Assembly (NCBI GenBank): GCA_945868575.1
Contig: CAMBMH010000001.1
Coordinates: forward strand, 1-64,000
Source: Singulisphaera sp. GP187
Lineage (GTDB): Bacteria > Planctomycetota > Planctomycetia > Gemmatales > Gemmataceae
Direction of reading: 5' to 3'
DNA: 64,000 nucleotides
Shown here in pieces: positions 1,037 through 19,806 of the stretch. The position numbers and the translations under genes are program-made. The notes beneath the pieces were generated by a model. The model worked only from the letters and a program-made list of their open reading frames with translations, was not told the DNA's origin and did no database searches. Numbering within the stretch: the stretch's first letter is position 1; the number at the start of each line of letters is the position of its first letter.

Positions 1037-1543
1037 GTGGCAGAAAAACCAATTGTAGGCGTAATAATGGGTTCTCAAAGCGATTGGGAAACCATGTCGC
1101 ACGCAAGCGCCATTCTCGACGAGATGGGGGTCCCCCACGAAACCCGGATTGTTTCCGCGCACCGAACGCCCGATTTGCTGTTTGAATATGCTTCCACGGC
1201 AGAGAAGCGGGGAATCGAAGTGATTATCGCTGGGGCCGGAGGCGCGGCCCACCTTCCGGGAATGGCGGCCTCGAAAACGGTTCTCCCTGTCCTGGGTGTT
1301 CCCGTTGAGTCCCATGCGCTCAGGGGTGTGGATTCCCTTCATTCGATTGTTCAGATGCCGGCGGGTATCCCGGTCGGAACTTTGGCAATCGGCAAAGCAG
1401 GCGCGATAAACGCTGCCATTTTGGCAACATCCATTTTGGGGATCAAATTTCCCCACTTTCGGGAGGCCCTAAGGAGTTTTCGGGAAAATCAAACCAGAAA
1501 AGTCCTTGCCACAAGTGATCCAAGAAGTGGTTTAGCGGGATGA
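1037..1543 (+). CDS. purE: 5-(carboxyamino)imidazole ribonucleotide mutase
   Basis: 168 aa; [13 protein letters not shown]...VSAHRTPD...[12 protein letters not shown] signature of class I PurE. Confidence 0.96.
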
Positions 1544-2503
1544 CCCACCGGTCCGGATCACAGGCAATTGCCCTGCCCTTCCGGCACCCGGAGCGAAATA
1601 ACCCTGTTGTTGAATTTGCCCTGGCGCCGTTCCAAGACTTGGGCCTTGGGTAGGAATGTTGTTTTGCCCCGAATTTGTGTTGGGAGCCATGTTTGCATTA
1701 GGCACTGACCCAGAACCAGGTTTGGGGAACGGAAGAGCCTGAACCGGTGGGCTGCCCATTCGGCCCCCCTGAATTGGATTTCCCATTTGGGTACCCTGGC
1801 CGGGGACTTCAGGTCCAGAAGCAGGTCCCTGCTTTGGGAATGGAAGCGCCTCTACAGGTTGACCGGAGCGAATCTGGGGCCCGGTATCCTTTTGGCCTTG
1901 GCTATTGAAAATGTTGGTCTTCACCCGGTTGACCCCTTCCGATTTTGCCTCGGCTGAATCCGGATGGGTCATGGTGATCGGGCCGCTATCGGTGTAAAGC
2001 GGATAACCGTTTGCGGGCTGGTACTTGACCTTTAACTGAACCCGGTTGACTTCCTCGGAGCAAGTGCCCCAAGGGAGGAACAATGTATACCCGAAACCAA
2101 TAGGGTCGAGCTTGCCCAGGCGGGCAAGGGTCACTGCATCAATTTGCCACTGTTCCAGGTGGATAGGATCTGGCCCCTTGTTGCCGCTGACATCGTAGAG
2201 GTCAACCACCAGGGTTCCTTTGCCCTTTAGTGGCTTGCCGATTTCGCTTCCAAAGAGGTAAAGCCGTCCGCCTATTCCGGCGGCGCTCATTCCACCACGA
2301 GCGGGATCTGGCGTGAAGATGACTTCAGGCTGCCAGGTTGTCACAATCTGACAAGCCACTTCCCGATTGGGGTGAAGGATGGATTCCGTTGTTGGGAGAG
2401 TCACACAACCCGTTTCGGATAAGGCCCCAGCAACCATCAAAGCCCCGGTGACTCCTCGCCAAAATGCCCGATTGACACGACCAAAACCTGTGTGCTTTTT
2501 CAT
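1532..2503 (-). CDS. Putative lipoprotein with Pro/Gly-rich C-terminal half; last gene of the T2SS-like operon
   Basis: N-terminal hydrophobic segment followed by GALSETGC (lipobox-like); same strand and directly downstream of the secretin; repeated P-V-[EQ]-A-L-P-F-P-K motif in the C-terminus. Confidence 0.7.
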
Positions 2504-2574: not shown

Positions 2575-5500
2575 CTATTGACCCGGACGGCGGGTATCCG
2601 CCCCGGGGATATTCTGTTGGGGATAAACCTGTCTAGGTTCACCACCCATCTGTTGCACATTGGGGACCCCAAGGCTCGGACCATCCACCCCTGCTGGCCC
2701 TTGCTGGGCGGGATAACCAGCCTGGCGAACACCGATCGTGCCACGATTGGCATCGATCTGGGCGGGATTTACCACGCCCCTGGTTGGAATTAGCGCTCCG
2801 GGAACCGCGCCACCCCTGGAAATTTCTTCACCCATTGGCCGACTGGGAAGCGGGTCTGGGAGGGACCGGGGAGCGGGAAGGAATTCGTCACCGCTAAGAC
2901 GATGCCGGGGTGGAATTTCTTCACCAGTGGGACGGCGCCCCGATTCCGGTGTTCCGGTTCCAGCAGGCGGCGTAGTTGTAGGCGCACCATTTACTGCGGG
3001 GGGTGCGAACAGGTTGGGGAAGTGACGCTTCTTGGTGGGTTCGGTGGGGATGACTCCATCCACATCTCCCGGAGGGGGAAGGATCGGCTGCAAACCGGAT
3101 GGTCCATGTGTTTTGATCACATCACCAACCACCCAGCTCATTCGGGAGGCTTCCATCGCGAGAACCCTGTCCGCCTCAAGCCGATTGCGAACCACATGGG
3201 GGGTCAGGATAACGAGAAGTTCCTGACGGTCCTTATATTGTTCGCGGTAGCGAAAGGCTGTTCCAACAAGAGGTAGATCGCCCAACCAGGGGATCTTGCG
3301 CTCGGATTTCTCATCCTGTTTCTTGATGAGGCCACCGATGGCAACCGTCTCCCCGTCCTGGGCAATTACTGTGGTTTCCACAGTTTGGGTATCGATCTGG
3401 AAGAGATCGATCGGGGCGGTTCCCGCAGAACCGGTCAATTGTTGACCGCTGGGGCTAGCCTTGGACACCTGGGGAGCTACCCGCATGATTACTTTGCCGT
3501 CAGGCGAGATCTTGGGGGTCACCACCAACTCCACACCTACCGGGGTGTAGGAGATGCTTTGTTGGGTTACGCCCACGGTCGCGTTGCTTGCGCCGATCAG
3601 GGGGAAGTTGGAACCAACAAACACGCGTGCCTGTTGGTTATCCAGAGTGGTTACCTGGGGGCGACTGAGAATATCCACCCTGCCCTGGGTCTTAAGGGCC
3701 CGAATCAGCAGGTTGAAGGAGTCCGAAGCGGCCGAGAATACCAGGCCACCCGCCCCAAGTCTGTTGCTTGTCCGTCCAACATTAAGCGAGTTCACACCCT
3801 GGAAACCAACTACACCCGATTGGTAGCTGCTATAAGGATAAGGAGCGGCTCCAATAAAGTTGGTACCCGGAGTGACAAAGTTGCCTGTGGTCTGGTTAAC
3901 CGTGACCCCTGCGGGCAACACAGTTGAAGGCGAGGCTCCACTCAGGCCAACCGTACCAGCCGAGCCTATGGAGGGGAGAATACCCCGCTGGAAAAGAACC
4001 GGACTTTGAAGACCGATCTCCATACCGAATTCTTCGCCACCGGTCAGCCTTACCTCGGCAATCATCACCTGAATAACGACCTGGGGCTGTTCCGAGTCCA
4101 GCTCATTGATTAGCTTGGTGATTTCACCAAACCATCGGGGAGTTGCGGACACAATCAGCTTGTTGGTGATCGGTTCCGGGATAATCACCACCTGACGGTC
4201 AACCTGTTGGAAGTTGCTGAGCTGGCCGCTGCTTTCATACACCTGCAATGAGCTGGTGATGAAGTTATTCAGGGCGCTGGCAAGGTCAGCGGCGGTAGTA
4301 TTCCTGAGAAGGAAGATCTCGTTTCGCCTTTGCTGAATATCAAATTCATCAAGGCGGGCAATAATTGCCTCGATCGCGTCGAGGTCGTTGCGGCTACCAG
4401 CAACAATAATGCTGTTGGTGCGCTCATCAGGCGAAATGCGCAGGTCAATCAGCGGAGCACCCGGTTGGGCAGAGCCGCCAAGTGCGATCTGAAGCGCACG
4501 ACCTGTGCTGCCCGCGTTGTTCCCCTGGTTACCTACGGCCAATCCACCAAAGGCGGGGTTTGCCCCACCGGCTTGTCCAGCCCGGCCCGTGGCTCCACCG
4601 GTGGTGGCCCCACCCAGGAACAGGTTTTGAATGGTGGTGGCGAGTGTTGTGGCATCGGCCTTCTTGAGGGGGAAGATATTGATTTCTGCCCGGGCAATCG
4701 GCGGAACATCCAACTCCTTGAGGAGGGAGACGATCAGGTCGACAGACTTTTCCGGAGCAGAGATGATCAGCCGGTTGGTCCTGGCATCGGCGGTGATGTG
4801 AACATCTTCAAGCACACCTGCCTCAACGGGCTTTCCGTCCTTGTCTTTCCCGACAATACGAAGGGTCTGGGCCTTGGTACCAGTGCCACGAACCGCCTGA
4901 TTGTTGGTGGCACCCTGTTGGCCGCCGCCACCAAAGAAGCCGCCACCAAAGAAGCCGCCACCACCCTGTTGTTGGGTGTTTGTACCAGGAATTGCGATTC
5001 CCTGTTGGATGGCGGTATTGATCAGGGTCGAAAGCTCATCGGCCAAAGCGTACTTGAGGGGCACAACCCGCAATTCATTAACCGCTTTGGAAACATTGGT
5101 GTCCACTTTTTCGATCAGTGCCTTGATCTCTTCAAGGTCTGCGGCAGAAGCCTGAACGAATACCGTGTTGGAAGCATCATCCGAGGTGACACGGATCTGG
5201 TTTTGGGTGGTGGTTTCACCAGGGAACCGGTTGGAGTAAAAGTTGGTGATGAGGGTTGCGACCCGGGAAGCAGGCGCCTTTTTCAATTGGAAGGGCACCG
5301 CGCGGGACGCCTCGGCGTTGGGCCGATCCAATTTTTTAAGGTCGGCCAGGACTTCTTCCATGCGACCCTTTGGAGCCGCGATGAAAATCGCGTTCTGACG
5401 GGGCACAGGAATAAGGATAACACTGCCCGTTTGCTGTTGGCCTTGCTGGCCTTGTTGTTGGCCGGGCTGCCCACCACCGAACAGTGCGCCGAAGGGAAAA

Positions 5501-8500
5501 CCACCCTGGGGTTGTTGGGGCTGGCCAGGCTGTTGGCCGGGTTGAGCTTGTGGTTGGATGGCTCTTGTATTGCCAACGGCACTGATCACAACGGCCCGGT
5601 AAAGCTGCGAGAAGGTCGCCGCAATGCTGGTCGGGTCGCCGTATTCCATTGGAATCAGCTTGATTTGGAAATCGGAGGCGACTCCGGTCTTTTTGATGAA
5701 CTCGATGATTTGCATCACCGCTTCAATGTCGGCGGCGTTATTGCCACTTAGGATGAGGACCCCAAGTTGGCTGAGAGATTCAACCACGACAGCTTCTTTG
5801 GGACTGGGCAAATTATCCGCTTTGTTGGAAGCGCCGGGCTGAATGGCCACGGGTGGGCTTCCAGGAATGTTTTGCCAAGTTACCTTCTGAATACCCTGTT
5901 CCGCAATCACGCTAGCCGGAGTTGGATCGAGTCGGGGATCATAAATGGAGTTTTGGATAAAACCCAGGTTCCCTTGGTTGATTTCCGCCCTAAGGTCATC
6001 CGTGACCGCGTTGGCGAAAAAATCCGGGTTTCCTTGATCGTTTTGCCGGACCTGAGGTGTTGCAGGTTCATCAGAGCGTTGGGGAGGTGAACCACCGCCC
6101 ATACCGCCTCGGCCTCCGCCCATACCGCCTCGGCCTCCGCCCATGCCGCCGCCACCCATACCACCGCCACGGCCAAAGCCGCCGCCACCCATGCCACCAC
6201 GGCCAAAGCCGCCGCCACCCATACCACCCATACCACCCATGCCGCCGCCACCCATGCCACCACGGCCAAAACCACCGCCACCCATGCCACCAAAAGGCGA
6301 GCCACCACCACTCGGCAAGGCTGAGCCTCCTCCACCAAAACCGCTTGATGTAGGGCGGGAAGAAGTGCGTCCCTGGATGGCGTCAATTGCTTGTTGGACC
6401 AAAGCAGGATCAATCCCGGAAACAGGAACGACACGAACCACTTTGGCGTTCGGCTTGGCCGAGTTTTCCATGTACTCGACCAACTTAGAAATATCATCGT
6501 AAAGCGTTTGAGGACAATAAAGCATCAGACTGTTGCTTTTTTCATCAATTCCAATGCTAAGTGATACGCGCGCTGTCGCAGTTCCACCACCGCCGCCGCC
6601 ACCACCACCAAAAGGGAATCCAATTCCGGGGAATCCACCTGCGTTGGTGCTTGCCCCGGAGGATCGGGTCAAATCGCGATAAACATCCTGAATGGTTCGG
6701 GAAGCATCTGCGGCGAGGATATTTTCCAAAGGCCCAATGACCCAGGTTTTTGGTACTGCCTGGGAATCGCTTTCGCCCGAGTCCAATGCCTTTTCAAGGA
6801 GTTTTTTGATTGTGACAATGTCAAGTTTGCTGGCGCGGACCAATAGCGTATTGCTGGTAGCATCAGCCACCACACGAATCCGATTGGCGGCAGGACTGGT
6901 CGGGGCTCCTGCTCCAAGTCCGGCAAAGGGCAAAAGAGCCCCGATACCGCCAAAAAGCCCACCGCGTCCACCACCTGCGCCACCCTGCCCCTGGGCTGGT
7001 CCATTAAAAGCTTCCTCAAGGACCTTGGCTACCTGGGGAGCGCTTGCGGTCTTGAGGCGAATGATTTCAAAATCGCCTTCATTTGTAGGAGCAGTAGTCA
7101 ATACCCGGACAAGTTCCTGCGCAAGATTGAGTGTCTCCTCATCATCACAGGAAAGGAGCACTCTATTTCCCAAAACAGATATCTTCAAAGGCGCATCTTT
7201 GCGACCGGGCAGATCCCGAGCAAAAGTGCGTGGTGCAACCGGAGGTCGCCCCTGTTCTGCTCCAGGGGAACCAGGAAGAATATCAGGAGGTTGGCCTACC
7301 TGGAGCGGGATTTGGGCAGAGACCTGAGTCAGGCCGTTTCCGTAAGGAAGCGAAGCTTCGGGCTGGTCGTTGCCGGTTGGTTTCTTGGGTTGCGTCTGGG
7401 GAATTCGTTGAATAGGTGCAGGAATATTGCCCGGAATTGTCGATGGCGTAGCCGTTGGGTTTACCACACGAACCGGATTGGCCCGCATTTGGGGCATCAT
7501 CCGTTCCAGGGATTCCGCCAGATCGGACGCGCTGCCTTTATCGATATTCAGGATGCGAAGGTTGCTGGTTCCGCCCATCGAGCTGGAACCATTGAGGGCC
7601 TTGATAATCTGTTCAACTTCGAGCACCTGGTCGGCCGGACCACGAACAATGATCGCATTTCGTTCAACAGATGCTTCAAGATAAGGAGCGCCACTCTTGG
7701 CATCGCCCAACATTCCCTTGAGGGTTTCAACCACCGTGGTGGGATTTAGTGCGCCTACCGCAAGGAGGGTGGTTCGAACACCCTTCTCCGTGCCGGAACC
7801 AAGTATCTGGCGGGCGATTTCCAACTGGTCATCCGGGGTCGCATAAACAATCACAGTGTTTGGATTGGCGGCGCTGATTCGGACAACCGGACTTGCCTTG
7901 TAAATTTCGGTGAGGGTCCGGGCCAAAGCATCGGCGGTTCCCGAGGGAACGGTGTATTGCTTGAGCAAAGGATTGCCTGGCAGGAATGGTTGCTGCCCGG
8001 GGGTGCCAACATCGATCCGTTTGAGCACATCGCGAGCCTGGGCGACCTTGTCCGCAGGACCGGTCACAAGAACGGTGTTTGTGCGGTCGTCGGTGGTGAT
8101 GCTGTGGGACCTGGAACGCCCGGTGGTAGCGGTGACCCGCCCCGTTCGGGGATCCATTACGGGCTGGCCACCCGCGGTTTGGGGAGTCAATTTGGGATCA
8201 CCCAAGAGGTCCTTGAGAATGCGTTCCGCATCACGGGCTTTGATGTATTTGCATTCGTAGGTGAGGCTTTCCGCCTGGACCTGATTTTCGTTCTGTTCAA
8301 TATCTTTGATGGTTTTGCGAATACGCTTGAGGTTGGCAACTGTGTCCTGCAGGATCAATTGGTTCGCCCGGGTCATGGGAACCACTTCACCAAAAGGCCC
8401 CATCATTTTCTTAATTTCAGGGGCGACATCCTCGGCCACCAGAGTGGTAAGCGGGAGGACAATCGACACCATTTCGGTGTTTCCCCGCTGGTCCAATTCC

Positions 8501-9120
8501 TCCATTGCAATGCGAGGCAACAGCGTGGGATCGATCTTTTCGTCGGCGGGAACCAGGGTGAATGATCGCTCACGACGGATGAGATAGAATTTTTGCGTCT
8601 CGCTATTGGCAAGAAGCGCCTCATTGATGATGTCAATCACCTCGGGAACGGTGTAAAGCTTCCCGGCAGGTCCCTGGAAGGTGAATGTTCCGGATGGTTT
8701 ATAGGTGGTGATAACGGGGAGGTCGGTCTGGTTGGTCAACCACTCGAAAACCCCGGCCCAAGGCTTGCTGTCAAAAGAAAAGGCTACCTTTTTTCCGCCA
8801 AAAGGCGCAGGAGAAGCAGCGGGAGGAGTCATACCCGATCCCGCAACGGACCCAAGCGGCCCAAGCGGCATTGGCGTCAGCCTGGGCTGAGGGAGTCCAC
8901 CGGGGGTGGCTCCTTGAATCGGAAGGGGTGTGGCTTGGAAAAACGCGGGTGCCTCCGCTGGAGCGGCAACAGGCTGGGCTACCCCAGAAACCGGCGGGAG
9001 ATTGGGAATCTGAGCCAAAGCCACAGGACCAAAATAGGCCAGCGCCCACGCTGCAACCCATGCCCTTTTGTTACCAAATACCCGATTGAACGGGCGACCC
9101 ATAGAATTTTGAAGGCTCAT
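2575..9120 (-). CDS. gspD: Giant type II/IV-type secretin (GspD/PilQ family) with about 13 N1-like modules
   Basis: Start chosen at MSLQNSMGRPFNR (ORF extends to 9153) with a signal peptide. C-terminal secretin signature VIAQDGETVAIGGLIKKQ...IPWLGDLPLVGTAFRYREQYKDRQELLVILTPHVV. Many repeats of the form (V)xxLKxAxAxxLAxxLxxxF...I..D.xTNTLIVxAxxxDLxxIxxLIxxLD. Confidence 0.95.
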   Translation of the reverse strand: MSLQNSMGRPFNRVFGNKRAWVAAWALAYFGPVALAQIPNLPPVSGVAQPVAAPAEAPAFFQATPLPIQGATPGGLPQPRLTPMPLGPLGSVAGSGMTPPAASPAPFGGKKVAFSFDSKPWAGVFEWLTNQTDLPVITTYKPSGTFTFQGPAGKLYTVPEVIDIINEALLANSETQKFYLIRRERSFTLVPADEKIDPTLLPRIAMEELDQRGNTEMVSIVLPLTTLVAEDVAPEIKKMMGPFGEVVPMTRANQLILQDTVANLKRIRKTIKDIEQNENQVQAESLTYECKYIKARDAERILKDLLGDPKLTPQTAGGQPVMDPRTGRVTATTGRSRSHSITTDDRTNTVLVTGPADKVAQARDVLKRIDVGTPGQQPFLPGNPLLKQYTVPSGTADALARTLTEIYKASPVVRISAANPNTVIVYATPDDQLEIARQILGSGTEKGVRTTLLAVGALNPTTVVETLKGMLGDAKSGAPYLEASVERNAIIVRGPADQVLEVEQIIKALNGSSSMGGTSNLRILNIDKGSASDLAESLERMMPQMRANPVRVVNPTATPSTIPGNIPAPIQRIPQTQPKKPTGNDQPEASLPYGNGLTQVSAQIPLQVGQPPDILPGSPGAEQGRPPVAPRTFARDLPGRKDAPLKISVLGNRVLLSCDDEETLNLAQELVRVLTTAPTNEGDFEIIRLKTASAPQVAKVLEEAFNGPAQGQGGAGGGRGGLFGGIGALLPFAGLGAGAPTSPAANRIRVVADATSNTLLVRASKLDIVTIKKLLEKALDSGESDSQAVPKTWVIGPLENILAADASRTIQDVYRDLTRSSGASTNAGGFPGIGFPFGGGGGGGGGTATARVSLSIGIDEKSNSLMLYCPQTLYDDISKLVEYMENSAKPNAKVVRVVPVSGIDPALVQQAIDAIQGRTSSRPTSSGFGGGGSALPSGGGSPFGGMGGGGFGRGGMGGGGMGGMGGMGGGGFGRGGMGGGGFGRGGGMGGGGMGGGRGGMGGGRGGMGGGSPPQRSDEPATPQVRQNDQGNPDFFANAVTDDLRAEINQGNLGFIQNSIYDPRLDPTPASVIAEQGIQKVTWQNIPGSPPVAIQPGASNKADNLPSPKEAVVVESLSQLGVLILSGNNAADIEAVMQIIEFIKKTGVASDFQIKLIPMEYGDPTSIAATFSQLYRAVVISAVGNTRAIQPQAQPGQQPGQPQQPQGGFPFGALFGGGQPGQQQGQQGQQQTGSVILIPVPRQNAIFIAAPKGRMEEVLADLKKLDRPNAEASRAVPFQLKKAPASRVATLITNFYSNRFPGETTTQNQIRVTSDDASNTVFVQASAADLEEIKALIEKVDTNVSKAVNELRVVPLKYALADELSTLINTAIQQGIAIPGTNTQQQGGGGFFGGGFFGGGGQQGATNNQAVRGTGTKAQTLRIVGKDKDGKPVEAGVLEDVHITADARTNRLIISAPEKSVDLIVSLLKELDVPPIARAEINIFPLKKADATTLATTIQNLFLGGATTGGATGRAGQAGGANPAFGGLAVGNQGNNAGSTGRALQIALGGSAQPGAPLIDLRISPDERTNSIIVAGSRNDLDAIEAIIARLDEFDIQQRRNEIFLLRNTTAADLASALNNFITSSLQVYESSGQLSNFQQVDRQVVIIPEPITNKLIVSATPRWFGEITKLINELDSEQPQVVIQVMIAEVRLTGGEEFGMEIGLQSPVLFQRGILPSIGSAGTVGLSGASPSTVLPAGVTVNQTTGNFVTPGTNFIGAAPYPYSSYQSGVVGFQGVNSLNVGRTSNRLGAGGLVFSAASDSFNLLIRALKTQGRVDILSRPQVTTLDNQQARVFVGSNFPLIGASNATVGVTQQSISYTPVGVELVVTPKISPDGKVIMRVAPQVSKASPSGQQLTGSAGTAPIDLFQIDTQTVETTVIAQDGETVAIGGLIKKQDEKSERKIPWLGDLPLVGTAFRYREQYKDRQELLVILTPHVVRNRLEADRVLAMEASRMSWVVGDVIKTHGPSGLQPILPPPGDVDGVIPTEPTKKRHFPNLFAPPAVNGAPTTTPPAGTGTPESGRRPTGEEIPPRHRLSGDEFLPAPRSLPDPLPSRPMGEEISRGGAVPGALIPTRGVVNPAQIDANRGTIGVRQAGYPAQQGPAGVDGPSLGVPNVQQMGGEPRQVYPQQNIPGADTRRPGQ
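6080..6345 (-). repeat. Imperfect ~30-bp tandem repeats encoding a Gly/Met/Arg/Phe-rich segment (GGMGGGGFGRGGMGGGG...) within the secretin
   Basis: Repeated ccgccgccacccatgccaccacggccaaag units visible on the + strand. Confidence 0.85.
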
Positions 9121-9316
9121 GGAAGAACCCTGACTTTCTGACGCCGCCCTCATTTAGCATGGATGTCAAGGACATAACATCAACGCAAAGAGGGTCCGGC
9201 AAGTTCATGCTACCCCTGCAATGGTTAAGATCGGCAGAGTTTGCCCAAATTCTTTTGCGAAAATACCGGTCGTTCCCAAAAAAAAGATTTTAACAATTAG
9301 GCAAGATAGGTAAGGA

Positions 9317-10549
9317 CTAGTTCCCGGTTGGCTTTCGCCCCTCTTTCTTTTGATCTCCCTTGCTTGATCCATCCTTTTTGGTTGGAGTTTCCGGTTTGGC
9401 AGGAACCAATTTTTCCAAACCAAGCAGTTTTAGCGCATCCAAATCCAGGGGAGTGTTCACTACCGGGAAAAAGGTTTCCCCACAACGCATCAGATACAAC
9501 TCTCCATCCGTTTGAAAAACAATATATGACGGATCTATATGAAGCAACTTGGCCTTCAACACAAGATTGTCATACTTATCTTTTATCGAAAAATCACTCC
9601 AGGCAGCTGAGGTCCTCAACTTCGTTTCCCGTCCCCCTCGATTCTGGTCATAAACATACGCTTCCCAACGGCGACCATCTCCGGAAATTGTCGTTAGTTT
9701 CACACCCGAGAGGACCTCTTCACGATCTTCTTCCGGGCCTCGAACCACCGCTGGGGGTGGTGCAGGAGGTTCCGGGGGTGCGGGAGGCGGATCGGGCTGA
9801 AAGAAGGGATTGGCCGAGGCCAGGATGGTGTAGTCCCTTTTTTGGGCCGCAAGAACCTTTTGGGGAGTTACCGAAGACTTGGCATCCGCAGAAAGTTTTT
9901 CAGGGACTAAGCGATTATTTTTCTCAGCACCGGGAACCATCAAACCCTCAACCGTTAAGACCATTTTCAGGTCCGATTTGCTTTGGGACTTCTTCAGGTT
10001 TTCAACCTTCAGGGTTGGAACATGATGCAACAGGGGAACCCGGTGAAGCATCTCCAAAAAATTCCCAAGGTCTTCGAGTTTTCCCTGCGTGCTGATTTCA
10101 AATGCAACAGGCTTGTAGGCGTCTTTCCGGCCTTCCTTGGTTTCAAGTTTGGGAATCGCCTGATTGGTAAAGCTCCTTCCAATCGTAACGATCGTGTTGC
10201 CAGGCTTGAAACCACTTGCGTTTAACAGGTCCCGAAGCAAGGTTGAATAATCGAGCCTCAGGGATGCCAAATGTGCGTTTTGGGCATCCGCATCGGGTTT
10301 TTGGGCAACCGGCAAACTCAGCTTTTTCCAATCCTTGAGACGAGGGTGCTTCTCGAGAACCTTTGTGATTTTGCCGCCTTCGTTTTCAACCTCTTCCTCG
10401 AGACGCCCTACCTCTGTTTCAAGGGTGTCGATTTGCGCGCGCATATCCGACCATGGGGAATAAAACCCATAATAGAAGCCGCCTCCACCCACACCAAACA
10501 CCATGATCGCGCCAAGGATCCAGGCTAGAGTTTTTTCTCTGGGTGTCAT
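9317..10549 (-). CDS. GspM/PilO-like inner-membrane assembly protein with extra C-terminal domain (possible GspC/PilP-like fusion)
   Basis: Short cytoplasmic N-terminus, one TM (LAWILGAIMVFGVGGGGFYYGFY), coiled coil, PilO-like segment, Pro-rich linker, then a small beta-rich domain; between gspL-like and gspD. Confidence 0.7.
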   Translation of the reverse strand: MTPREKTLAWILGAIMVFGVGGGGFYYGFYSPWSDMRAQIDTLETEVGRLEEEVENEGGKITKVLEKHPRLKDWKKLSLPVAQKPDADAQNAHLASLRLDYSTLLRDLLNASGFKPGNTIVTIGRSFTNQAIPKLETKEGRKDAYKPVAFEISTQGKLEDLGNFLEMLHRVPLLHHVPTLKVENLKKSQSKSDLKMVLTVEGLMVPGAEKNNRLVPEKLSADAKSSVTPQKVLAAQKRDYTILASANPFFQPDPPPAPPEPPAPPPAVVRGPEEDREEVLSGVKLTTISGDGRRWEAYVYDQNRGGRETKLRTSAAWSDFSIKDKYDNLVLKAKLLHIDPSYIVFQTDGELYLMRCGETFFPVVNTPLDLDALKLLGLEKLVPAKPETPTKKDGSSKGDQKKEGRKPTGN

Positions 10550-12165
10550 GACTTGCCCTCCTTGCCGCCAATACCTTCCCTGGTGTTGGACTTTTTATCT
10601 AAATTATCTTTGTTTTCTTTGGGCGACGCTTTTTCCTGAGCAGATGCGTCCCCAGCGCCAGATGCTTCACCAGGCTCAAGATCCATGGGACCTTTTGTTG
10701 CACCGGAAGTTTTCAACTCGGGCTTTGCGGCGGGAACCAACTTTCGGTTGTAATCGTTCGGTGGCCGCCTTTTCACATCGATTTCCAAGGTAAAGTCGGA
10801 GCCTTTTTGCTCCTCCTTTTCGATTTTGTAAACCCCGTCCTTGCGCAATTCATCCAGTAGCGACTTCAGGGCTTCACGCTTTTCGGGTCCGCCGGGAAGA
10901 GTTCCCTTGATCGTGAGGTGACTTCGAAAATCGGTTTCTTTCTCAGGATTGCGCCTTGGTGAAGCACTGATTTCAGTCAGTTGCAGATCCTTTGTGTTGG
11001 GGATCCGATGGGATATGTCATAGATCTCGTCCAACCAAACCACATCGTCCCAAGCTCCAAGGGCTTGATACCTTTTCGCAGTAACTTTGGAATCTTCAAA
11101 TTCCTTTTTCAGACTATCGCGACGCCTTGTAAGTGTATCCAGTTCGTCCATGGTCCGGCTTTTTACGCCCCAAAGGAACCACCCAGCCACTACAAACGCA
11201 ATGAAACCAACAAAAGCATAAATTGCGACCCGCTGCTGCTCCATTTGGGAGGGCGGAGGAGGTTGTTTGGGATTAAGGAAATCGGGCCTGTTTTTATGCC
11301 CCTTTTCCTCCACCCGGGCCAAACCAGACAAAACTCCCAAAGCGGCAACATAATCGCTACTGTTGATTGGCAAGCTTGGAGCATCCAAAACTCCATCAAA
11401 AGGAAGAATCCTTTGGAGGGGGAGTTTTGTGGCCGAGGCCAAGTCAGCGTCCTGATCCCATTTTGGTGGAGCCAACAGGAAAAGGGATTTGGGCGCGGTT
11501 TCCGGGTTCTGTGACCCATAAAGAGACAGGCTTCGCCGAATTTCCTGGACCAAACCGGTGGCGGGGTTTAATGAGCGGCTGAAAAGGGGTTTACCATTAA
11601 GGAGGACCACCAATTCCGACCACGCTCCACCAACAGCGACCACGGCCACAGGCTCATCCACTGGGCCAAGGTCCGACATCAGGCCAACGAGACCAGACAA
11701 TCTGGGACTAAGGCCCCCCAGTTTCAGTTGGGAACCGGTCGCTATGGTTTTCCAAGTGTTGAATAGCTCGATCCGCAAAAGGAGAGCCAGAACCCGGCGA
11801 TCGGCCGCTCCAGGCAAATCCGCGGTTTCATAATCCAGCTTGACTTCATCCGGAGATTCATTGAGATCACGCATCACCTGGAAGCGGACCATTCCCGGCT
11901 CTTCTGCCGGTCCCACACGGGGGATGGCCAATTGGCGTGCAATGAGTCTGTCGCGCGGCAAGGAAACAACAAGTCGGGCACCCGCAACGGCGAAATCTTT
12001 TAGAAAAGCCTTGAGCTGTTCGGCCTGCTCCTCGGCCATCACCGGATTCGGACTGCCTTCGGTTTCAATGGTAAGTACCTTGCAACCCGCAAGGCCTTTC
12101 CGGGCGGTCAAGCCCAGAACGCTTAAGCGACCATTATCCCAATCGATGTATACCTTACGGATCAT
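10546..12165 (-). CDS. GspL-like protein (PilM-like actin fold fused to PilN-like segment)
   Basis: 539 aa; N-terminal PilM/GspL-like domain, TM helix IYAFVGFIAFVVAGWFLWGV, coiled coil, periplasmic domain; operon position. Confidence 0.75.
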   Translation of the reverse strand: MIRKVYIDWDNGRLSVLGLTARKGLAGCKVLTIETEGSPNPVMAEEQAEQLKAFLKDFAVAGARLVVSLPRDRLIARQLAIPRVGPAEEPGMVRFQVMRDLNESPDEVKLDYETADLPGAADRRVLALLLRIELFNTWKTIATGSQLKLGGLSPRLSGLVGLMSDLGPVDEPVAVVAVGGAWSELVVLLNGKPLFSRSLNPATGLVQEIRRSLSLYGSQNPETAPKSLFLLAPPKWDQDADLASATKLPLQRILPFDGVLDAPSLPINSSDYVAALGVLSGLARVEEKGHKNRPDFLNPKQPPPPSQMEQQRVAIYAFVGFIAFVVAGWFLWGVKSRTMDELDTLTRRRDSLKKEFEDSKVTAKRYQALGAWDDVVWLDEIYDISHRIPNTKDLQLTEISASPRRNPEKETDFRSHLTIKGTLPGGPEKREALKSLLDELRKDGVYKIEKEEQKGSDFTLEIDVKRRPPNDYNRKLVPAAKPELKTSGATKGPMDLEPGEASGAGDASAQEKASPKENKDNLDKKSNTREGIGGKEGKS

Positions 12166-12262: not shown

Positions 12263-13798
12263 TTACAGGCCAGCCAATTTCGCCGGGTCGGCCCCCGCAT
12301 CCCTAGCTTGGCGTGCCTTTTCCGAAAGGTCGCGGAAGTATACCACACGGGGGCGAGGACCGCTGATATCCACTACAACTTCCATCAGTCCCATTGGTCC
12401 GCCCTGATCGAGTTTACCCATTATCCGGACACGATAAGCCGTGGACCGCCCGGTAACATACCGTTCGAGTGATCGAATTTTGTTCGGATCAAGCTTGGCC
12501 TCGGTGAAAAGCCACGTCGGACTCTGATAGAGCGGGTCATCAGAAACCATCGAGGAAGGCCTTGTCCCCACAATGTTTTGCAGGTCCGACTCCTGAAGGG
12601 ATGGGAGTCCAGCCAGCAAAACAGGGTCAGCCGTAAGCAGGTTGAGTTTGCCAGGCAAATCGACATCCTGACTGGTGGTGTAACCCTGATAAAGCGAGGG
12701 GAGATATTGCTTTGCCAACATGGGATCCTTGAGCGGACTCGGAAATGTCACGGTTTTTTGGGTTTTCCCCGAGCCCACGCTGATATCCACATTTTTGGAT
12801 ACCAAATCCATAATATTTGTGATCTTGTTCAGTTTGGCCATCCCTGTGGAAGCCTGCTGCATTTTGTTGCTGATTTCAGTGGAGACCAGAGTGTAATCAT
12901 TGGAATTCATTCCTGATACACCACCACTGGATCCCTTTCCCGAAGCAAGGTTGGCAAGGACAGTGACTGTGCTAACAGGCTGCTTGGACGCGCCATACAA
13001 CCTGTAAGCCATCACAAAATTACTAACTTGCTCCCCTGCAACCGTATTGAGTTCCTGCTGGAGCGTAGGAAGATCAGCAGAATTCAGGTTTACCTTGGCG
13101 TTCCAGGCGTTGGTAGAGGCGTTTGAAGGTGGAACCAGATTCTGTTCCCGGCTGTAAACGGTAAAATACTTCGACAAGCCGGGATTGGAGGAATCCCCAA
13201 AGAGTACCTCGGGGGTAACACCTTTGACCAGAAGCAATTCATCAATCGTATCGAGTGGACCATTTTTGCAATAATAAGGAGGCTGCAAGGTGTTGTAGTA
13301 TTCACTTTCCGCACCGGCATCACCTATCGTGTCATCGTTGTCCACCCAATCGACCACCGCATCGATGATCGCATCGCCAAGGACCGGGATCTGGGGCTGC
13401 AAACGCTTGAGGGTGTCTTTCAGGGTCTTTCCAGTTGGATCAACCTGCAACAGGGCGTTGATGTTCCATTTCGAGGACTCATCGTCTACAGTAAGGATCT
13501 CAAAAGTGGCCGACTGGGAGCCATTGACCAGGGAAATCGACTGGACCGTTCCCGCCTGGGGAATATTCCCCTGGGCAAGTTCCGACAATACAAACGCAAC
13601 ACCCGAATCCGCGATTGAGCGTGCCTGGGCTAGCCGAACGGCGGAGTCAGTTGCCCGGTATTCCGCCATCATGTTGTCATTAAATCGATAAGCCGCAAGT
13701 GAAAGAAACGCAACAACCATCAACACCGCAAGCAACACCACACCCCGGCGGGTTTCGCCGGAGGTTGGCAGTCGATTTGGTGTCAATCTGAGTTTCAT
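12263..13798 (-). CDS. gspK: Type II secretion minor pseudopilin GspK
   Basis: N-terminal RRGVVLLAVLMVVAFLSLAAYRF...; large GspK-type protein located next to gspJ. Confidence 0.85.
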   Translation of the reverse strand: MKLRLTPNRLPTSGETRRGVVLLAVLMVVAFLSLAAYRFNDNMMAEYRATDSAVRLAQARSIADSGVAFVLSELAQGNIPQAGTVQSISLVNGSQSATFEILTVDDESSKWNINALLQVDPTGKTLKDTLKRLQPQIPVLGDAIIDAVVDWVDNDDTIGDAGAESEYYNTLQPPYYCKNGPLDTIDELLLVKGVTPEVLFGDSSNPGLSKYFTVYSREQNLVPPSNASTNAWNAKVNLNSADLPTLQQELNTVAGEQVSNFVMAYRLYGASKQPVSTVTVLANLASGKGSSGGVSGMNSNDYTLVSTEISNKMQQASTGMAKLNKITNIMDLVSKNVDISVGSGKTQKTVTFPSPLKDPMLAKQYLPSLYQGYTTSQDVDLPGKLNLLTADPVLLAGLPSLQESDLQNIVGTRPSSMVSDDPLYQSPTWLFTEAKLDPNKIRSLERYVTGRSTAYRVRIMGKLDQGGPMGLMEVVVDISGPRPRVVYFRDLSEKARQARDAGADPAKLAGL

Positions 13799-13810: not shown

Positions 13811-15112
13811 CTATTTGGATTTTCCGGAGGAGCCGCCGTTTGATTTCGACGACCCTGAAGGTATGGTTGCGCCACTTCCCGAACCACCGCCGGTAGATTT
13901 TGAGCCACCCCCACTTGTCCCGGAGGATTTGGATCCCGAGGAATTGGATCCGCTTGGAGTAGATTTCGAACCAGCCCCTGAACTCGAACCTCCCGAGGAG
14001 CTTGAACCCGATGATGATGAGGATCCGGAGGAGGAAGAGGAGGAAGATGAAGTCCCACTATCGGGGGAGTTTGCACCAGGGTCCACAACCTTGCCAAGCG
14101 CAATGGAATTAGCCGTCGGAAGCGCCACAATTTGTGAATAACGACGAATGGTTTTGCCGTCAGCTCCCTCCATCTCCACTTCAATTTTCACAGCCCTTGG
14201 AGGACCCTGAGGCGTGGAACTGTCATAGCTGAGAGATCGGCTATCCCAGAAATCCGTCCAGTATCCTGGCGTGCCGTCGTTGTAGCTAAAAGTGATCGAG
14301 CGCACCTCGGGTGCAATAATGAGGTTTTCAACATCTGCGGGAAGGCTGGATGTGTTGACACTATCAGGCGATGAGACCTGGCTTGATTCCCAACGGGCGA
14401 GCCCCTGTCCCTCCCCGGGAACCCAATAAGTTACCCGCTTTACATCACAAGCAGGCCCCTCGAAATCGGTTGGAGATTGTGATCCCGAACCGGTACTCGA
14501 AGTTGCTCCGCTAGGGGCTCGAAGAGTTCCTGCCTGGAAGGCAGTCAACTGATCCTGATAACCCACCACTCCAGGAATAAAAAGTACCCTTACCTGGGCT
14601 TGTGTGCTAGTGGTTGAAGAGGATGAAGAAGAGGATGAACCGGTGCTACCCGAAGAGGAGGAGCCGCTTGAACTTCCGGATTTGGATGCGCTGCCCGAGG
14701 AGGAACCGCTTGTGGAGGAACCGCTTCCAAGGCCTGTACCACTCCCCGAACTTGACGATGAACCGGTGGAGCCTGATGCTGTTCCACTTGAGTCACCCGT
14801 TGTGGAGGACGAGGAGCTACTGTCCTCCGTGGGGTAATACAAATCACCCGTGCGAAAGGGACCGGGATTGTTAATGGTAATGGCGCCTACCATGTCCCGG
14901 GCGATCCGGTCCATTAGGGCCCGGGCCAAGGTTGCCTGCGCAATGGCATCGCGACTATTTTGGGTGGTAAAGACCTGGAGCTCAACAACCACATAAAGTC
15001 CACCCAAAAGAAGCAAACTAATGGCGCTCGCCAACAGGGCCTCAAGAAGGGTGAAACCCTTGCGACCCCTTTTACGGTTTGGGACGGTTTGAAAATGGAC
15101 TCTATTTTCCAT
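13811..15112 (-). CDS. gspJ: Minor pseudopilin GspJ with Ser/Gly-rich internal insert and tail
   Basis: Start at MENRVHFQTV; prepilin motif KGFTLLEALLASAIS; long Ser/Gly/Thr tracts. The longer ORF to 15292 overlaps gspI and is unlikely. Confidence 0.85.
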   Translation of the reverse strand: MENRVHFQTVPNRKRGRKGFTLLEALLASAISLLLLGGLYVVVELQVFTTQNSRDAIAQATLARALMDRIARDMVGAITINNPGPFRTGDLYYPTEDSSSSSSTTGDSSGTASGSTGSSSSSGSGTGLGSGSSTSGSSSGSASKSGSSSGSSSSGSTGSSSSSSSSTTSTQAQVRVLFIPGVVGYQDQLTAFQAGTLRAPSGATSSTGSGSQSPTDFEGPACDVKRVTYWVPGEGQGLARWESSQVSSPDSVNTSSLPADVENLIIAPEVRSITFSYNDGTPGYWTDFWDSRSLSYDSSTPQGPPRAVKIEVEMEGADGKTIRRYSQIVALPTANSIALGKVVDPGANSPDSGTSSSSSSSSGSSSSSGSSSSGGSSSGAGSKSTPSGSNSSGSKSSGTSGGGSKSTGGGSGSGATIPSGSSKSNGGSSGKSK

Positions 15113-15134
15113 GACACTCACTCCTTTGCAAGTA

Positions 15135-15656
15135 TCACTTGGTTGTTGAACCGGAGGAGGATCCACCAGAAGAGGTGGATCCTGAACTACTTGATCCTGT
15201 GGTGCCCGAACTGGTTGAGCCGTCTGCCAATTCTTCAGGAATAGCATCCATGGTGCTGCCCAATGCTTGGGGATCAACAAGATATTGGACAAGATTTACC
15301 TTGGACCGTAGCGCCCCATCCCTTTGGGCTGTGGCGGTGACCTGAAAGAGGCTTGTGCCAACGGACTGCACATCGACCGACCAAGTATACCGATCATCCG
15401 TATCCCAAATTCCGCTGCTGCTCGAAAGGCCCACCACCCCTGCCTTCATTTCAGCGATTTTGGATTCGGCAACAAGGAGTGAAACGCTCCGCTGTTCGGC
15501 CTCTTCAGCACGCTCACGAGCCATGTCGACCAAGCTGGTAATGGCGACAATCGACATAAAAAATATGGCAAGAGAGATAAGCACCTCAAGAAGGGTCATT
15601 CCCTTTCGGTTTTTTCTTTTGCGATCCATTCGAGAAAGGCGATTGATTTTGATCAT
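15135..15656 (-). CDS. gspI: Minor pseudopilin GspI with Ser/Gly-rich C-terminal tail
   Basis: KGMTLLEVLISLAIFFMSIVAITSL prepilin motif; gene order H-I-J. Confidence 0.82.
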   Translation of the reverse strand: MIKINRLSRMDRKRKNRKGMTLLEVLISLAIFFMSIVAITSLVDMARERAEEAEQRSVSLLVAESKIAEMKAGVVGLSSSSGIWDTDDRYTWSVDVQSVGTSLFQVTATAQRDGALRSKVNLVQYLVDPQALGSTMDAIPEELADGSTSSGTTGSSSSGSTSSGGSSSGSTTK

Positions 15657-15657
15657 T

Positions 15658-16200
15658 TTAGCGCTCCACCGAGGAGGTCCCGGTCAAAGCCCGCAAATGA
15701 ATAACAGCGGGGCGCACTCCTAATCCTTCACAAAGGATGGTGACATCGAAATCGGCACGGCCATCAGGATAGAAAACCGCAACCTTCTGCCAGGAAGTGG
15801 GGTTCACCTCACCGATTTCCATCGCGGTTTGACGACTTCCAAAAGATACGATTTCGCCCGCCGAAACACCATTATCGATACTAAGGGCAACACCCTGGGG
15901 AAGCGCATCTTCGTGCTCTTCATCCTCATCCGATGCCCCACCATTCCAGGCATCATCCCGGTCCGGGGCGGCCTTCAGGTTGCCGCCTCCATCAACAATA
16001 GAAAGCCGGTAAGGTTCGCCCTCTTCTATGGCCAAATGGCGTGCCATCGAGATTGCAGCCCGAACCGTGTCCGAGGCAGATTTCATGGTCTCGCCACGAA
16101 ACCAACCGGTCATTGTGGGGTAAGCCATTGCGGCCAGCATGACAATCACAGCCAGGACAAGCACCATTTCCAGGAGCGTAAATCCACTTCTGCGTTTCAT
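15658..16200 (-). CDS. gspH: Minor pseudopilin GspH
   Basis: MKRRSGFTLLEMVLVLAVIVMLAAMAYPTM; GspH-like C-terminus (VAVFYPDGRADF...VIHLRALTG). Confidence 0.85.
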   Translation of the reverse strand: MKRRSGFTLLEMVLVLAVIVMLAAMAYPTMTGWFRGETMKSASDTVRAAISMARHLAIEEGEPYRLSIVDGGGNLKAAPDRDDAWNGGASDEDEEHEDALPQGVALSIDNGVSAGEIVSFGSRQTAMEIGEVNPTSWQKVAVFYPDGRADFDVTILCEGLGVRPAVIHLRALTGTSSVER

Positions 16201-16245
16201 GTCAACTCCCTCCGACCAAGTCAGCCACATCAATCCTTCAATGGA

Positions 16246-16662
16246 TTATTTCGGGGCTTCACCAAGAGGCTTGCCATTCTTGGTTGTCCAAACATAGCAA
16301 GTGGTATTGGTTTCACTATCCAGGGATTGAAATTGAAACTGCTGGCCCCAGGGATCAACAAGGGTTTCCTGCTTTTCGAGGTAGGTCGGGACCAATTCCT
16401 GGAGATTGCCAGGCCAGTTTCCTGTGTTCGTTTTAAAGGCCATCGCTGCCGACTTGATGGTTTTTGCGTTGATAGCAGCGGCCTTCTCTTTGGACTGCTC
16501 GAGCTGATTGAGTAGGGAAACGGTTCCAAGGCCTGCCAAAACAACAATGATCGCAACCACAACCAGGATTTCCATCAAGGTAAAAGCTCGGCGGGAAATA
16601 CGGCCAAGGTTACCAAGGGGACGATTAAGGGTGGTGTTTTGCAACGGAGCAAGCATTTTCAA
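16246..16662 (-). CDS. gspG: Major pseudopilin GspG
   Basis: RRAFTLMEILVVVAIIVVLAGLG...LQELVPTYLEKQETLVDPWGQQFQF, typical GspG. Confidence 0.92.
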   Translation of the reverse strand: MKMLAPLQNTTLNRPLGNLGRISRRAFTLMEILVVVAIIVVLAGLGTVSLLNQLEQSKEKAAAINAKTIKSAAMAFKTNTGNWPGNLQELVPTYLEKQETLVDPWGQQFQFQSLDSETNTTCYVWTTKNGKPLGEAPK

Positions 16663-16737: not shown

Positions 16738-17943
16738 TCAATCAATGGCACTCGACATCTTGAACACGGGGAGCAAAAGTCCGGCTACAACCCCCAAAGT
16801 CAAACCCGCCATCACCAAAAGCATCATTGGTTCAAGGAGCCTGACAAAAAGGTCCAGCTCACGGGTGGTTCGTTTTTCCAGGCCGTTTGCAATGTCCAAA
16901 AGGACTTTTTCGAGGTTGTTGCTCTCTTCACCCACAGAAACCATTTCCACCAAATCCCTTGGAAAATATTTGCTGTTGGCGAGTGGGGTGGTAAGGCTAT
17001 CACCCGATTTGATATTTTCCGCACTCTTTTCAATAGCTTCGGCTATTACCTTGTTGCCCGTTGAATCTTTAGCAATCCTCAAGGACTGAAGGATCGGGAT
17101 TCCGTTTTTCAGTAGGGTTCCAAGAATTCGGGCAAACCTTGCGATGGACAAACTCAAAAAGATGCGCCCCATACCCGGAACGCTGATCTTGAAAAGATCC
17201 ACCGAGCGACGACCGGCCTCTGTCGCGGCCCATGAGGAAAACCAGTACCAAAGTCCAAACGCCGCCAACAGAAGCAAAACACCATAATATTGGAGGCCAT
17301 GGCTAAGACCGATCAGCGCCTCGGTGATCATCGGGAGTTGCCCCTTCTCTCGAAGCCGGACAAAGATCTGCTCGAACTGGGGGACAAAGAAAATGATCAG
17401 GATATTGAGAATGATGAAACCAATGATCCCCAAAAATACAGGGTAAGCCATGGCCCCGCTGACCTTGGACCTTAGCTCCTCCTGATGTTCAGTGAAATCG
17501 GCGATACGCCTTAGCACATCCTCCAAAAAGCCACCCTCCTGGCCGGCCAACACCATGCTGATTGCCAATTCACCAAAAACTTTCGGATGCTGCCCCATAG
17601 CCTGGGCCAATCCTGTACCATCCGCGACCTTTGCGCGAATCTCCTTGATAACGGCAGAAAATCCTGCGTTGGAGGCCTGTCGTTCCAAAATTTCAAGTGA
17701 CCTGAGAAGGGGCACGCCCGATTGGAGCAGATCCGCCAACTGGGAAAAGAATCCGGCAAGGATTCGGCTGGAAACGCGTTTGCCGCCCGCGGCCTTGGCG
17801 GCGTTTTGCATTGCCTCCAGCTTGATTGGCATCAGCCCTTTGGAATCCAACATCGAGACAGCTTCACGCTCGCTGTTGGCGGTAAGAACACCTTTGCTCT
17901 TAACCCCAGTAGAGGCCATTGCGATATAATTGTAATCCGGCAT
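16738..17943 (-). CDS. gspF: Type II secretion inner membrane protein GspF
   Basis: 401 aa; two GspF/PilC-type repeats (FFSQLADLLQSGVPLLRSLEIL; FARILGTLLKNGIPILQSLRIA). Confidence 0.95.
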   Translation of the reverse strand: MPDYNYIAMASTGVKSKGVLTANSEREAVSMLDSKGLMPIKLEAMQNAAKAAGGKRVSSRILAGFFSQLADLLQSGVPLLRSLEILERQASNAGFSAVIKEIRAKVADGTGLAQAMGQHPKVFGELAISMVLAGQEGGFLEDVLRRIADFTEHQEELRSKVSGAMAYPVFLGIIGFIILNILIIFFVPQFEQIFVRLREKGQLPMITEALIGLSHGLQYYGVLLLLAAFGLWYWFSSWAATEAGRRSVDLFKISVPGMGRIFLSLSIARFARILGTLLKNGIPILQSLRIAKDSTGNKVIAEAIEKSAENIKSGDSLTTPLANSKYFPRDLVEMVSVGEESNNLEKVLLDIANGLEKRTTRELDLFVRLLEPMMLLVMAGLTLGVVAGLLLPVFKMSSAID

Positions 17944-19677: not shown

Positions 19678-19806
19678 GACCACTCCGGGGATAAACAACG
19701 GCCGCAACAGACCCCACCATCTGTTAACTTGACCCGCAAATTGGTTGGACCTGAGGAAGGTAAGTCTAATTCTGGCCGGTAATAGGTGAATTAATTATGA
19801 GAACAG

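What the first reader, a model, noticed from the sequence alone, without database searches (positions are those of the whole stretch)
4440..7010. Gly/Gln-rich loops inserted at the same position in successive secretin modules
At least six modules carry a low-complexity insert between the first beta-alpha unit and the following strand: GQGGAGGGRGGLFGGIGALLPFAG; NAGGFPGIGFPFGGGGGGGGG; the long GGMGGGGFGRGG run; QPGQQPGQPQQPQGGFPFGALFGGGQPGQQQGQQGQQQ; QQQGGGGFFGGGFFGGGGQQ; GGATTGGATGRAGQAGGANPAFGG. This recurrence looks architectural rather than random. Inference: a series of flexible Gly/Gln/Phe loops could line the lumen or the outside of the stacked rings, acting as FG-like gates or a selectivity mesh.
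Basis: partly seen in the sequence, partly recalled or inferred. Interest (0 to 1): 0.72.

Follow-up and report, generated by a model that had tools for sequence, protein, structure and literature searches.

The report
Giant secretin with flexible ring-seam loops
A planctomycete's outer-membrane secretion channel is built from an unusually long stack of 13 ring modules, and eight of those rings carry long floppy loops (six of them glycine-rich, most with phenylalanine) at exactly the spot where ordinary channels of this kind have one short floppy loop; whether the loops act as a gate is untested.

Summary
The gene at 2575-9153 (-) encodes a 2192-aa GspD-type secretin, last gene of a T2SS operon in a Gemmataceae-like planctomycete. 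It has N0 plus 13 ring-building modules (M1-M13). Every low-complexity stretch inside the modules lies in one loop, alpha1-beta2. AF2 puts all inserts between helix 1 and strand 2 and predicts them disordered. All 23 family orthologues have the same eight inserts, while M1, M3, M4, M10 and M13 keep short loops.

The site is not new: it is the known variable N3 loop of secretins (InvG, PulD). New here are its repetition over a long stack and a Gly/Phe-rich composition specific to Gemmatales (FG 1.9-2.1 per 100 aa versus 0.16-0.30 elsewhere), kept by selection on the protein. M8's insert ends in a conserved motif, DFFE..VMDDP...LYDP.

The FG-gate reading is possible but unproven. FG pairs exceed local composition only modestly, and volume arithmetic says the loops cannot all sit in an open lumen. 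Best guess: seam loops that clog the lumen at rest and are pushed aside by the pseudopilus.

The parts
2575..9153 (-). gspD-type secretin gene, 2192 aa
   Evidence: TIGR02517 458.9 bits (cut-off 351.35), PF00263 156.5 bits, PF03958 in 10 stretches
8524..8796 (-). N0 domain (aa 120-210)
   Evidence: AF2 secondary structure and PDB matches to GspD/XcpQ/PulD N0-N1-N2
8284..8478 (-). module M1 (aa 226-290), loop 4 aa, no insert
   Evidence: module HMM
8008..8271 (-). module M2 (aa 295-382)
   Evidence: module HMM
8104..8199 (-). M2 alpha1-beta2 insert, 32 aa; G/P/D-rich, often with DPRF motifs in orthologues
7798..7968 (-). module M3, no insert
7594..7776 (-). module M4, no insert
7096..7563 (-). 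module M5 (aa 531-686)
7189..7494 (-). M5 insert, 102 aa, Pro-rich, not Gly-rich
6784..7074 (-). module M6 (aa 694-790)
6880..7005 (-). M6 insert, 42 aa, Gly-rich with GLFGG
6463..6750 (-). module M7 (aa 802-897)
6562..6669 (-). M7 insert, 36 aa, GFPGIGFPFGGG
5689..6447 (-). module M8 (aa 903-1155)
5791..6369 (-). M8 insert, 193 aa, the longest; Gly/Phe/Met/Arg tract, then motif, then Pro/Gln-rich stretch
6095..6292 (-). imperfect DNA tandem repeats (21, 30, 63 bp units) in the M8 Gly tract
   Evidence: TRF
5935..6024 (-). conserved motif in the M8 insert (aa 1044-1073, DFFANAVTDD...YDP; orthologue form DFFE..VMDDP...LYDP)
   Evidence: present in Gemmataceae and sister-family proteins, absent in other orders
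5323..5673 (-). module M9 (aa 1161-1277)
5422..5598 (-). M9 insert, 59 aa, Gln/Gly/Pro-rich
5098..5304 (-). module M10, loop 13 aa, no insert
4705..5082 (-). module M11 (aa 1358-1483)
4804..5007 (-). M11 insert, 68 aa: Gly/Phe/Gln tract plus a conserved TK..LRF...(V/I)E(S/A)G.LED element (weak hairpin in AF2)
4342..4686 (-). module M12 (aa 1490-1604)
4444..4617 (-). M12 insert, 58 aa, Gly/Ala/Thr-rich
4093..4323 (-). module M13 = canonical N3, loop 22 aa
3163..4086 (-). secretin core (aa 1690-1997)
   Evidence: PF00263
9317..19707 (-). rest of the T2SS operon: gspE 17977-19707, gspF 16738-17943, gspG 16246-16662, gspH 15658-16233, gspI 15135-15656, gspJ-like from 13811, gspK 12263-13798, gspL/pilM-like 10546-12165, gspM-position ORF 9317-10549

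Best explanation
Shown: a GspD-type T2SS secretin with N0 and 13 ring-building modules, in which the family's one permissive site, the alpha1-beta2 loop, carries long, predicted-disordered inserts in eight modules; the choice of modules, and the Gly/Phe-rich make-up in most of them, are conserved across the Gemmatales. Inferred: this loop comes out at the seam between neighbouring rings, as InvG's does, so each insert forms a ring of 12-15 flexible tethers around a seam of a stack roughly 35 nm long plus the core. At rest part of them fall into the lumen as a loose, weakly sticky (Gly/Phe/Arg) filling that narrows the tube, an amplified form of the N3 constriction of GspD. When the pseudopilus and cargo enter, the loops are pushed out through the seams into the periplasm. 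The M8 insert, the longest and the only one with a conserved linear motif, probably also docks a partner or a neighbouring ring through that motif.
For: Module HMM finds 13 modules; family calls GspD; operon E-F-G-H-I-J-K-L-M-D. All inserts lie between helix 1 and strand 2, pLDDT about 25-40. Loop lengths in 24 proteins: inserted modules always 25 aa or more and variable (M8 120-249); M1, M3, M4, M10 and M13 nearly fixed. Inserts keep 71% aa identity to the congener although 57% of identical residues use a different codon, close to the modules' own 53%, so selection acts on the protein. Phe 4.9% in Gly-rich inserts against 2.7% in the core, Tyr 0.4 against 1.6%; FG 1.9-2.1 per 100 aa in Gemmatales against 0.16-0.30 in other groups. 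[quoted passage not shown] PulD's unmodelled residues 288-303 fall at the same site and PulD has N3 constriction sites (PMC6882859).
Against: No ring model was available, so inward or outward direction is not shown; InvG's ordered loop points outward. The excess of FG over local composition is small. Inserts at homologous modules in other planctomycete orders are Pro/Ala/Gln/Glu-rich, so a Gly/Phe gate is not needed for such a secretin. The M8 Gly tract contains imperfect DNA repeats, so length at least is shaped by slippage. All inserts together overfill the lumen.
Confidence: 0.4

Rival explanations
1. Outward-facing tethers: the inserts leave the seams toward the periplasm and act as spacers or docking arms holding the long tube to peptidoglycan or periplasmic and inner-membrane partners, with no role in gating.
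For: Volume: lumenal packing of all inserts gives 54-120% occupancy. InvG's loop threads outward between rings. M8 carries a conserved motif typical of docking. No GspC homologue was found in the 90%-complete genome, so another link to the inner membrane may be needed.
Against: Phe enrichment and low charge are unusual for solvent-exposed tethers. Only M8 and M11 have conserved linear elements; M6, M7, M9 and M12 conserve composition more than sequence.
Confidence: 0.3
2. Tolerated expansion: alpha1-beta2 is simply the one loop that can grow without disturbing ring packing; Gly-rich DNA repeats expand there and are only weakly selected.
For: Tandem repeats in M8 and M11 DNA; large length variation; inserts at the same site in N2/N3 of ordinary GspD, including an unrelated Gly-rich case without Phe (L145).
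Against: In 24 proteins none of M1, M3, M4, M10 or M13 gained a long insert and none of the eight lost one. Synonymous turnover with retained residues shows protein-level constraint. Gly-rich segments are rare in a related genome sample (9 of 304 predicted genes, several of them probably spurious). Conserved motifs in M8 and M11.
Confidence: 0.25
3. One reading: all inserts line the lumen and form an FG-nucleoporin-like selectivity mesh.
For: Phe is nearly the only aromatic residue and is mostly followed by Gly (262 cases); few acidic residues or lysines; FG-rich only in Gemmatales.
Against: Overfilled lumen; modest FG excess over local shuffles; half of the orthologues lack FG in M9 and M11 and more than half in M12; no known transport-receptor counterpart.
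Confidence: 0.05

Closest known systems
T2SS secretin GspD/PulD/XcpQ (N0-N1-N2-N3-core)
   Same: Family score over cut-off, same N0 and betaalphabetabetaalpha modules, secretin core, T2SS operon; short disordered loop at the same site in N3 (PulD 288-303)
   Different: 13 N1-type modules instead of 3; long inserts in eight of them; no GspC found in the genome
InvG (SPI-1 T3SS secretin) N3 variable insertion, residues 217-267
   Different: One insertion in one ring; not Gly/Phe-rich repeats over many rings; T3SS-type secretin
Thermus thermophilus PilQ (six stacked N rings)
   Same: Lengthened stack of betaalphabetabetaalpha rings
   Different: Six rings, pilus/DNA-uptake secretin; no comparable inserts reported in the passages read (PMC5745081)
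FG nucleoporins
   Same: Disordered, Gly-rich, Phe nearly the only aromatic, low charge, anchored in a ring
   Different: No homology; short loops fixed at both ends rather than long tails; FG not regularly spaced (median F-F distance 7); gating untested

Membership tests
T2SS secretin GspD | Secretin core domain (PF00263) | tested here: met
   156.5 bits, cut-off 27.5
T2SS secretin GspD | Whole-protein GspD equivalog score | tested here: met
   TIGR02517 458.9 bits against cut-off 351.35; PilQ and SctC models below their cut-offs. Repeated modules add to the score
T2SS secretin GspD | N0 followed by N1-type modules | tested here: met
   AF2 and Foldseek to PulD 6hcg E 3.9e-11; module count 13 is outside the usual 3
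T2SS secretin GspD | Encoded with gspE/F/G/H/I/J/K | tested here: met
T2SS secretin GspD | GspC partner | tested here: not met
   No PF11356 in the 90%-complete genome; GspC is not conserved in all T2SS-like systems, and a divergent one could be missed
Secretin alpha1-beta2 variable loop (as in InvG N3) | Insert between first helix and second strand | tested here: met
Secretin alpha1-beta2 variable loop (as in InvG N3) | Forms a lumenal constriction in the closed state | not testable with these tools
   Needs a ring structure
FG-nucleoporin-like barrier | FG motifs beyond composition | tested here: inconclusive
   z about 3-4 with 10-15 residue block shuffles in related sequences
FG-nucleoporin-like barrier | Faces the channel and is cohesive and selective | not testable with these tools
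   No oligomer model, no experiment

The most novel reading that the evidence does not exclude
Gemmatales have turned the secretin variable loop into a multi-layer, phenylalanine-based permeability barrier inside a periplasm-spanning tube, a bacterial analogue by convergence of the FG phase, possibly within the crateriform outer-membrane complexes of planctomycetes.
Probability: 0.08. Interest if true: 0.9.

Novelty: new variant of a known kind. Interest (0 to 1): 0.5.

Why it matters
Secretin gating is understood from short secretins with one N3 loop. This family repeats the same loop over a long stack, with module-specific and conserved presence, which makes the loop's role testable module by module. 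It may also bear on how planctomycetes, with their wide periplasm, link the two membranes and exchange macromolecules. I found no paper in the searched library that describes these long secretins.

Tried and rejected
Chance placement of inserts: rejected. Genome-wide Gly-rich habit: rejected on a 400-kb sample of a related genome (ORFs by length only). Pure DNA slippage without protein constraint: disfavoured. Annotation artefact or frameshift: rejected, 2192 aa open without stops and conserved in many genomes. Antisense ORFs such as 4330-5751 (+) were taken as mirror frames and not pursued. Lumen direction by ring modelling: no oligomer prediction or coordinates available. Survey of 199 genomes of the phylum: output ranked by score, so it says most top GspD matches are 600-1100 aa but does not count giant ones. 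Literature for planctomycete giant secretins: nothing found. L057 (G051 C3) was left out because the frame fetched was shorter than reported.

Full report
What is there. The ORF at 2575-9153 on the minus strand encodes 2192 aa. It scores above the GspD cut-off (TIGR02517, 458.9 bits against 351.35) and below those of PilQ and the T3SS secretin, and holds one secretin core and repeated Secretin_N domains. Upstream on the same strand are gspE, F, G, H, I, J, K, an L/PilM-like and an M-position gene. Relatives are planctomycetes of the Gemmataceae.

Modules. I aligned 24 family members, cut the modules into their two conserved halves, and built a profile. It finds 13 modules in the window protein, M1-M13, after an N0 domain. 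The last, M13, is the canonical N3. Because the profile was trained with long insertions allowed only at alpha1-beta2, it could hide inserts elsewhere; the entropy scan, the plain MAFFT alignment and the AF2 models do not share that bias and agree.

Inserts. Eight modules carry inserts, all between helix 1 and strand 2: M2 32 aa, M5 102, M6 42, M7 36, M8 193, M9 59, M11 68, M12 58. Six low-entropy segments in modules all fall in this loop. AF2 models of N0-M5 (mean pLDDT 71) and M6-M13 (mean pLDDT 53, shallow alignment of seven sequences) show strand-helix-gap-strand-strand-helix for the modules, with the gaps at pLDDT of roughly 25-40. Foldseek ties both models to GspD, PulD, XcpQ and ExeD N domains. 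The global arrangement of modules in these models is not reliable (pTM 0.35 and 0.23) and I draw nothing from it.

Conservation. In all 23 orthologues of the family the same eight modules have inserts of 25-249 aa, while M1 (4-5), M3 (2-6), M4 (5-9), M10 (12-14) and M13 (21-28) stay short. A sister family keeps the pattern from M5 to M13 with 11 modules in all. In other planctomycete orders the homologues of M8 and M11 have inserts too, but rich in Pro, Ala, Gln, Ser or Glu rather than Gly and Phe. In ordinary proteobacterial GspD the same loop is 12-119 aa long in N2 and N3. So the site is a family trait, presence in M8 and M11 is older than the order, and the Gly/Phe make-up belongs to the Gemmatales.

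Composition. Gly-rich inserts hold 30% Gly, 4.9% Phe, 0.4% Tyr, 0.1% Trp and few charges apart from Arg; the rest of the modules 6% Gly, 2.7% Phe, 1.6% Tyr. FG occurs 1.86 and 2.07 times per 100 aa in the two Gemmatales families and 0.16-0.30 elsewhere. Much of the FG count follows from Phe sitting in Gly-rich stretches: 262 observed against 164 +/- 10 when whole inserts are shuffled but 222 +/- 10 with 15-residue blocks. M8 has FG in 24 of 24 proteins, M12 in only 10. Against a congener, inserts are 71% identical while 57% of identical residues use another codon; the rest of the modules gives 82% and 53%. The residues are therefore held by selection although the tracts change length and contain imperfect tandem repeats. 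This is one species pair and not a dN/dS analysis.

The M8 motif. After its Gly/Phe tract the M8 insert has a conserved stretch of the form (P/R)DFFE..VMDDP...LYDP in Gemmataceae, with variants, and in the sister family, absent in the other orders examined. A conserved short motif in a disordered loop suggests binding; its partner is unknown.

Known parallels. [quoted passage not shown] it was first linked to a closed-state periplasmic constriction and, with the needle in place, is seen threading out between N3 and N1 (PMC6155069). MxiD has an unconserved, unmodelled insertion, residues 231-258, in N3 (PMC7058355). PulD residues 288-303 were not modelled (PMC6882859); by the alignment they lie at the same site, assuming chain numbering matches.

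Geometry. Taking PulD's 20 nm for four N rings plus core as a guide, I assumed 2.5 nm per ring, C15 symmetry and a 7-9 nm lumen. The stack would then be about 35 nm plus the core. The 590 insert residues per chain, times 15, would occupy 54-120% of the lumen, and the M8 inserts alone 334 nm3 against 126 nm3 for one ring slice. An open lumen lined by all inserts is thus not possible; a filling at rest by some of them, displaced outward on use, is. These are assumptions, not measurements.

Judgement. The mechanism is open between seam gate (0.4), outward tethers (0.3) and tolerated expansion (0.25), with the strong FG-mesh form at 0.05.

Noticed in passing
L058, L059, L084, L099: Secretins of 3089-3305 aa with 29-32 ring modules in other planctomycetes (one family of the same class, and contigs labelled Phycisphaerae or Planctomycetia). 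In L058/L059 the added N-terminal modules have 5-10 aa loops and the long inserts stay in the outer-membrane-proximal modules. ORFs were taken stop to stop and starts were not checked.
   Followed up: partly
window 5935-6024: Conserved motif DFFE..VMDDP...LYDP in the disordered M8 insert across Gemmatales; binding partner unknown.
   Followed up: partly
whole genome G000: No GspC (PF11356) match although the T2SS operon is otherwise rather complete.
   Followed up: partly
window 13811-15656: GspI- and GspJ-like minor pseudopilins carry long Ser/Gly runs in their C-terminal parts.
   Followed up: no
L166:12909-17720 (-): A VWA protein of 1604 aa in a related genome has a Gly/Phe-rich stretch following what looks by eye like an N0/STN-type domain, so such loops are not confined to the secretin.
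   Followed up: partly
window 1532-2503 (-): Lipoprotein-like ORF of 323 aa directly downstream of gspD with no Pfam or NCBIfam match; a candidate pilotin or partner by position only.
   Followed up: no
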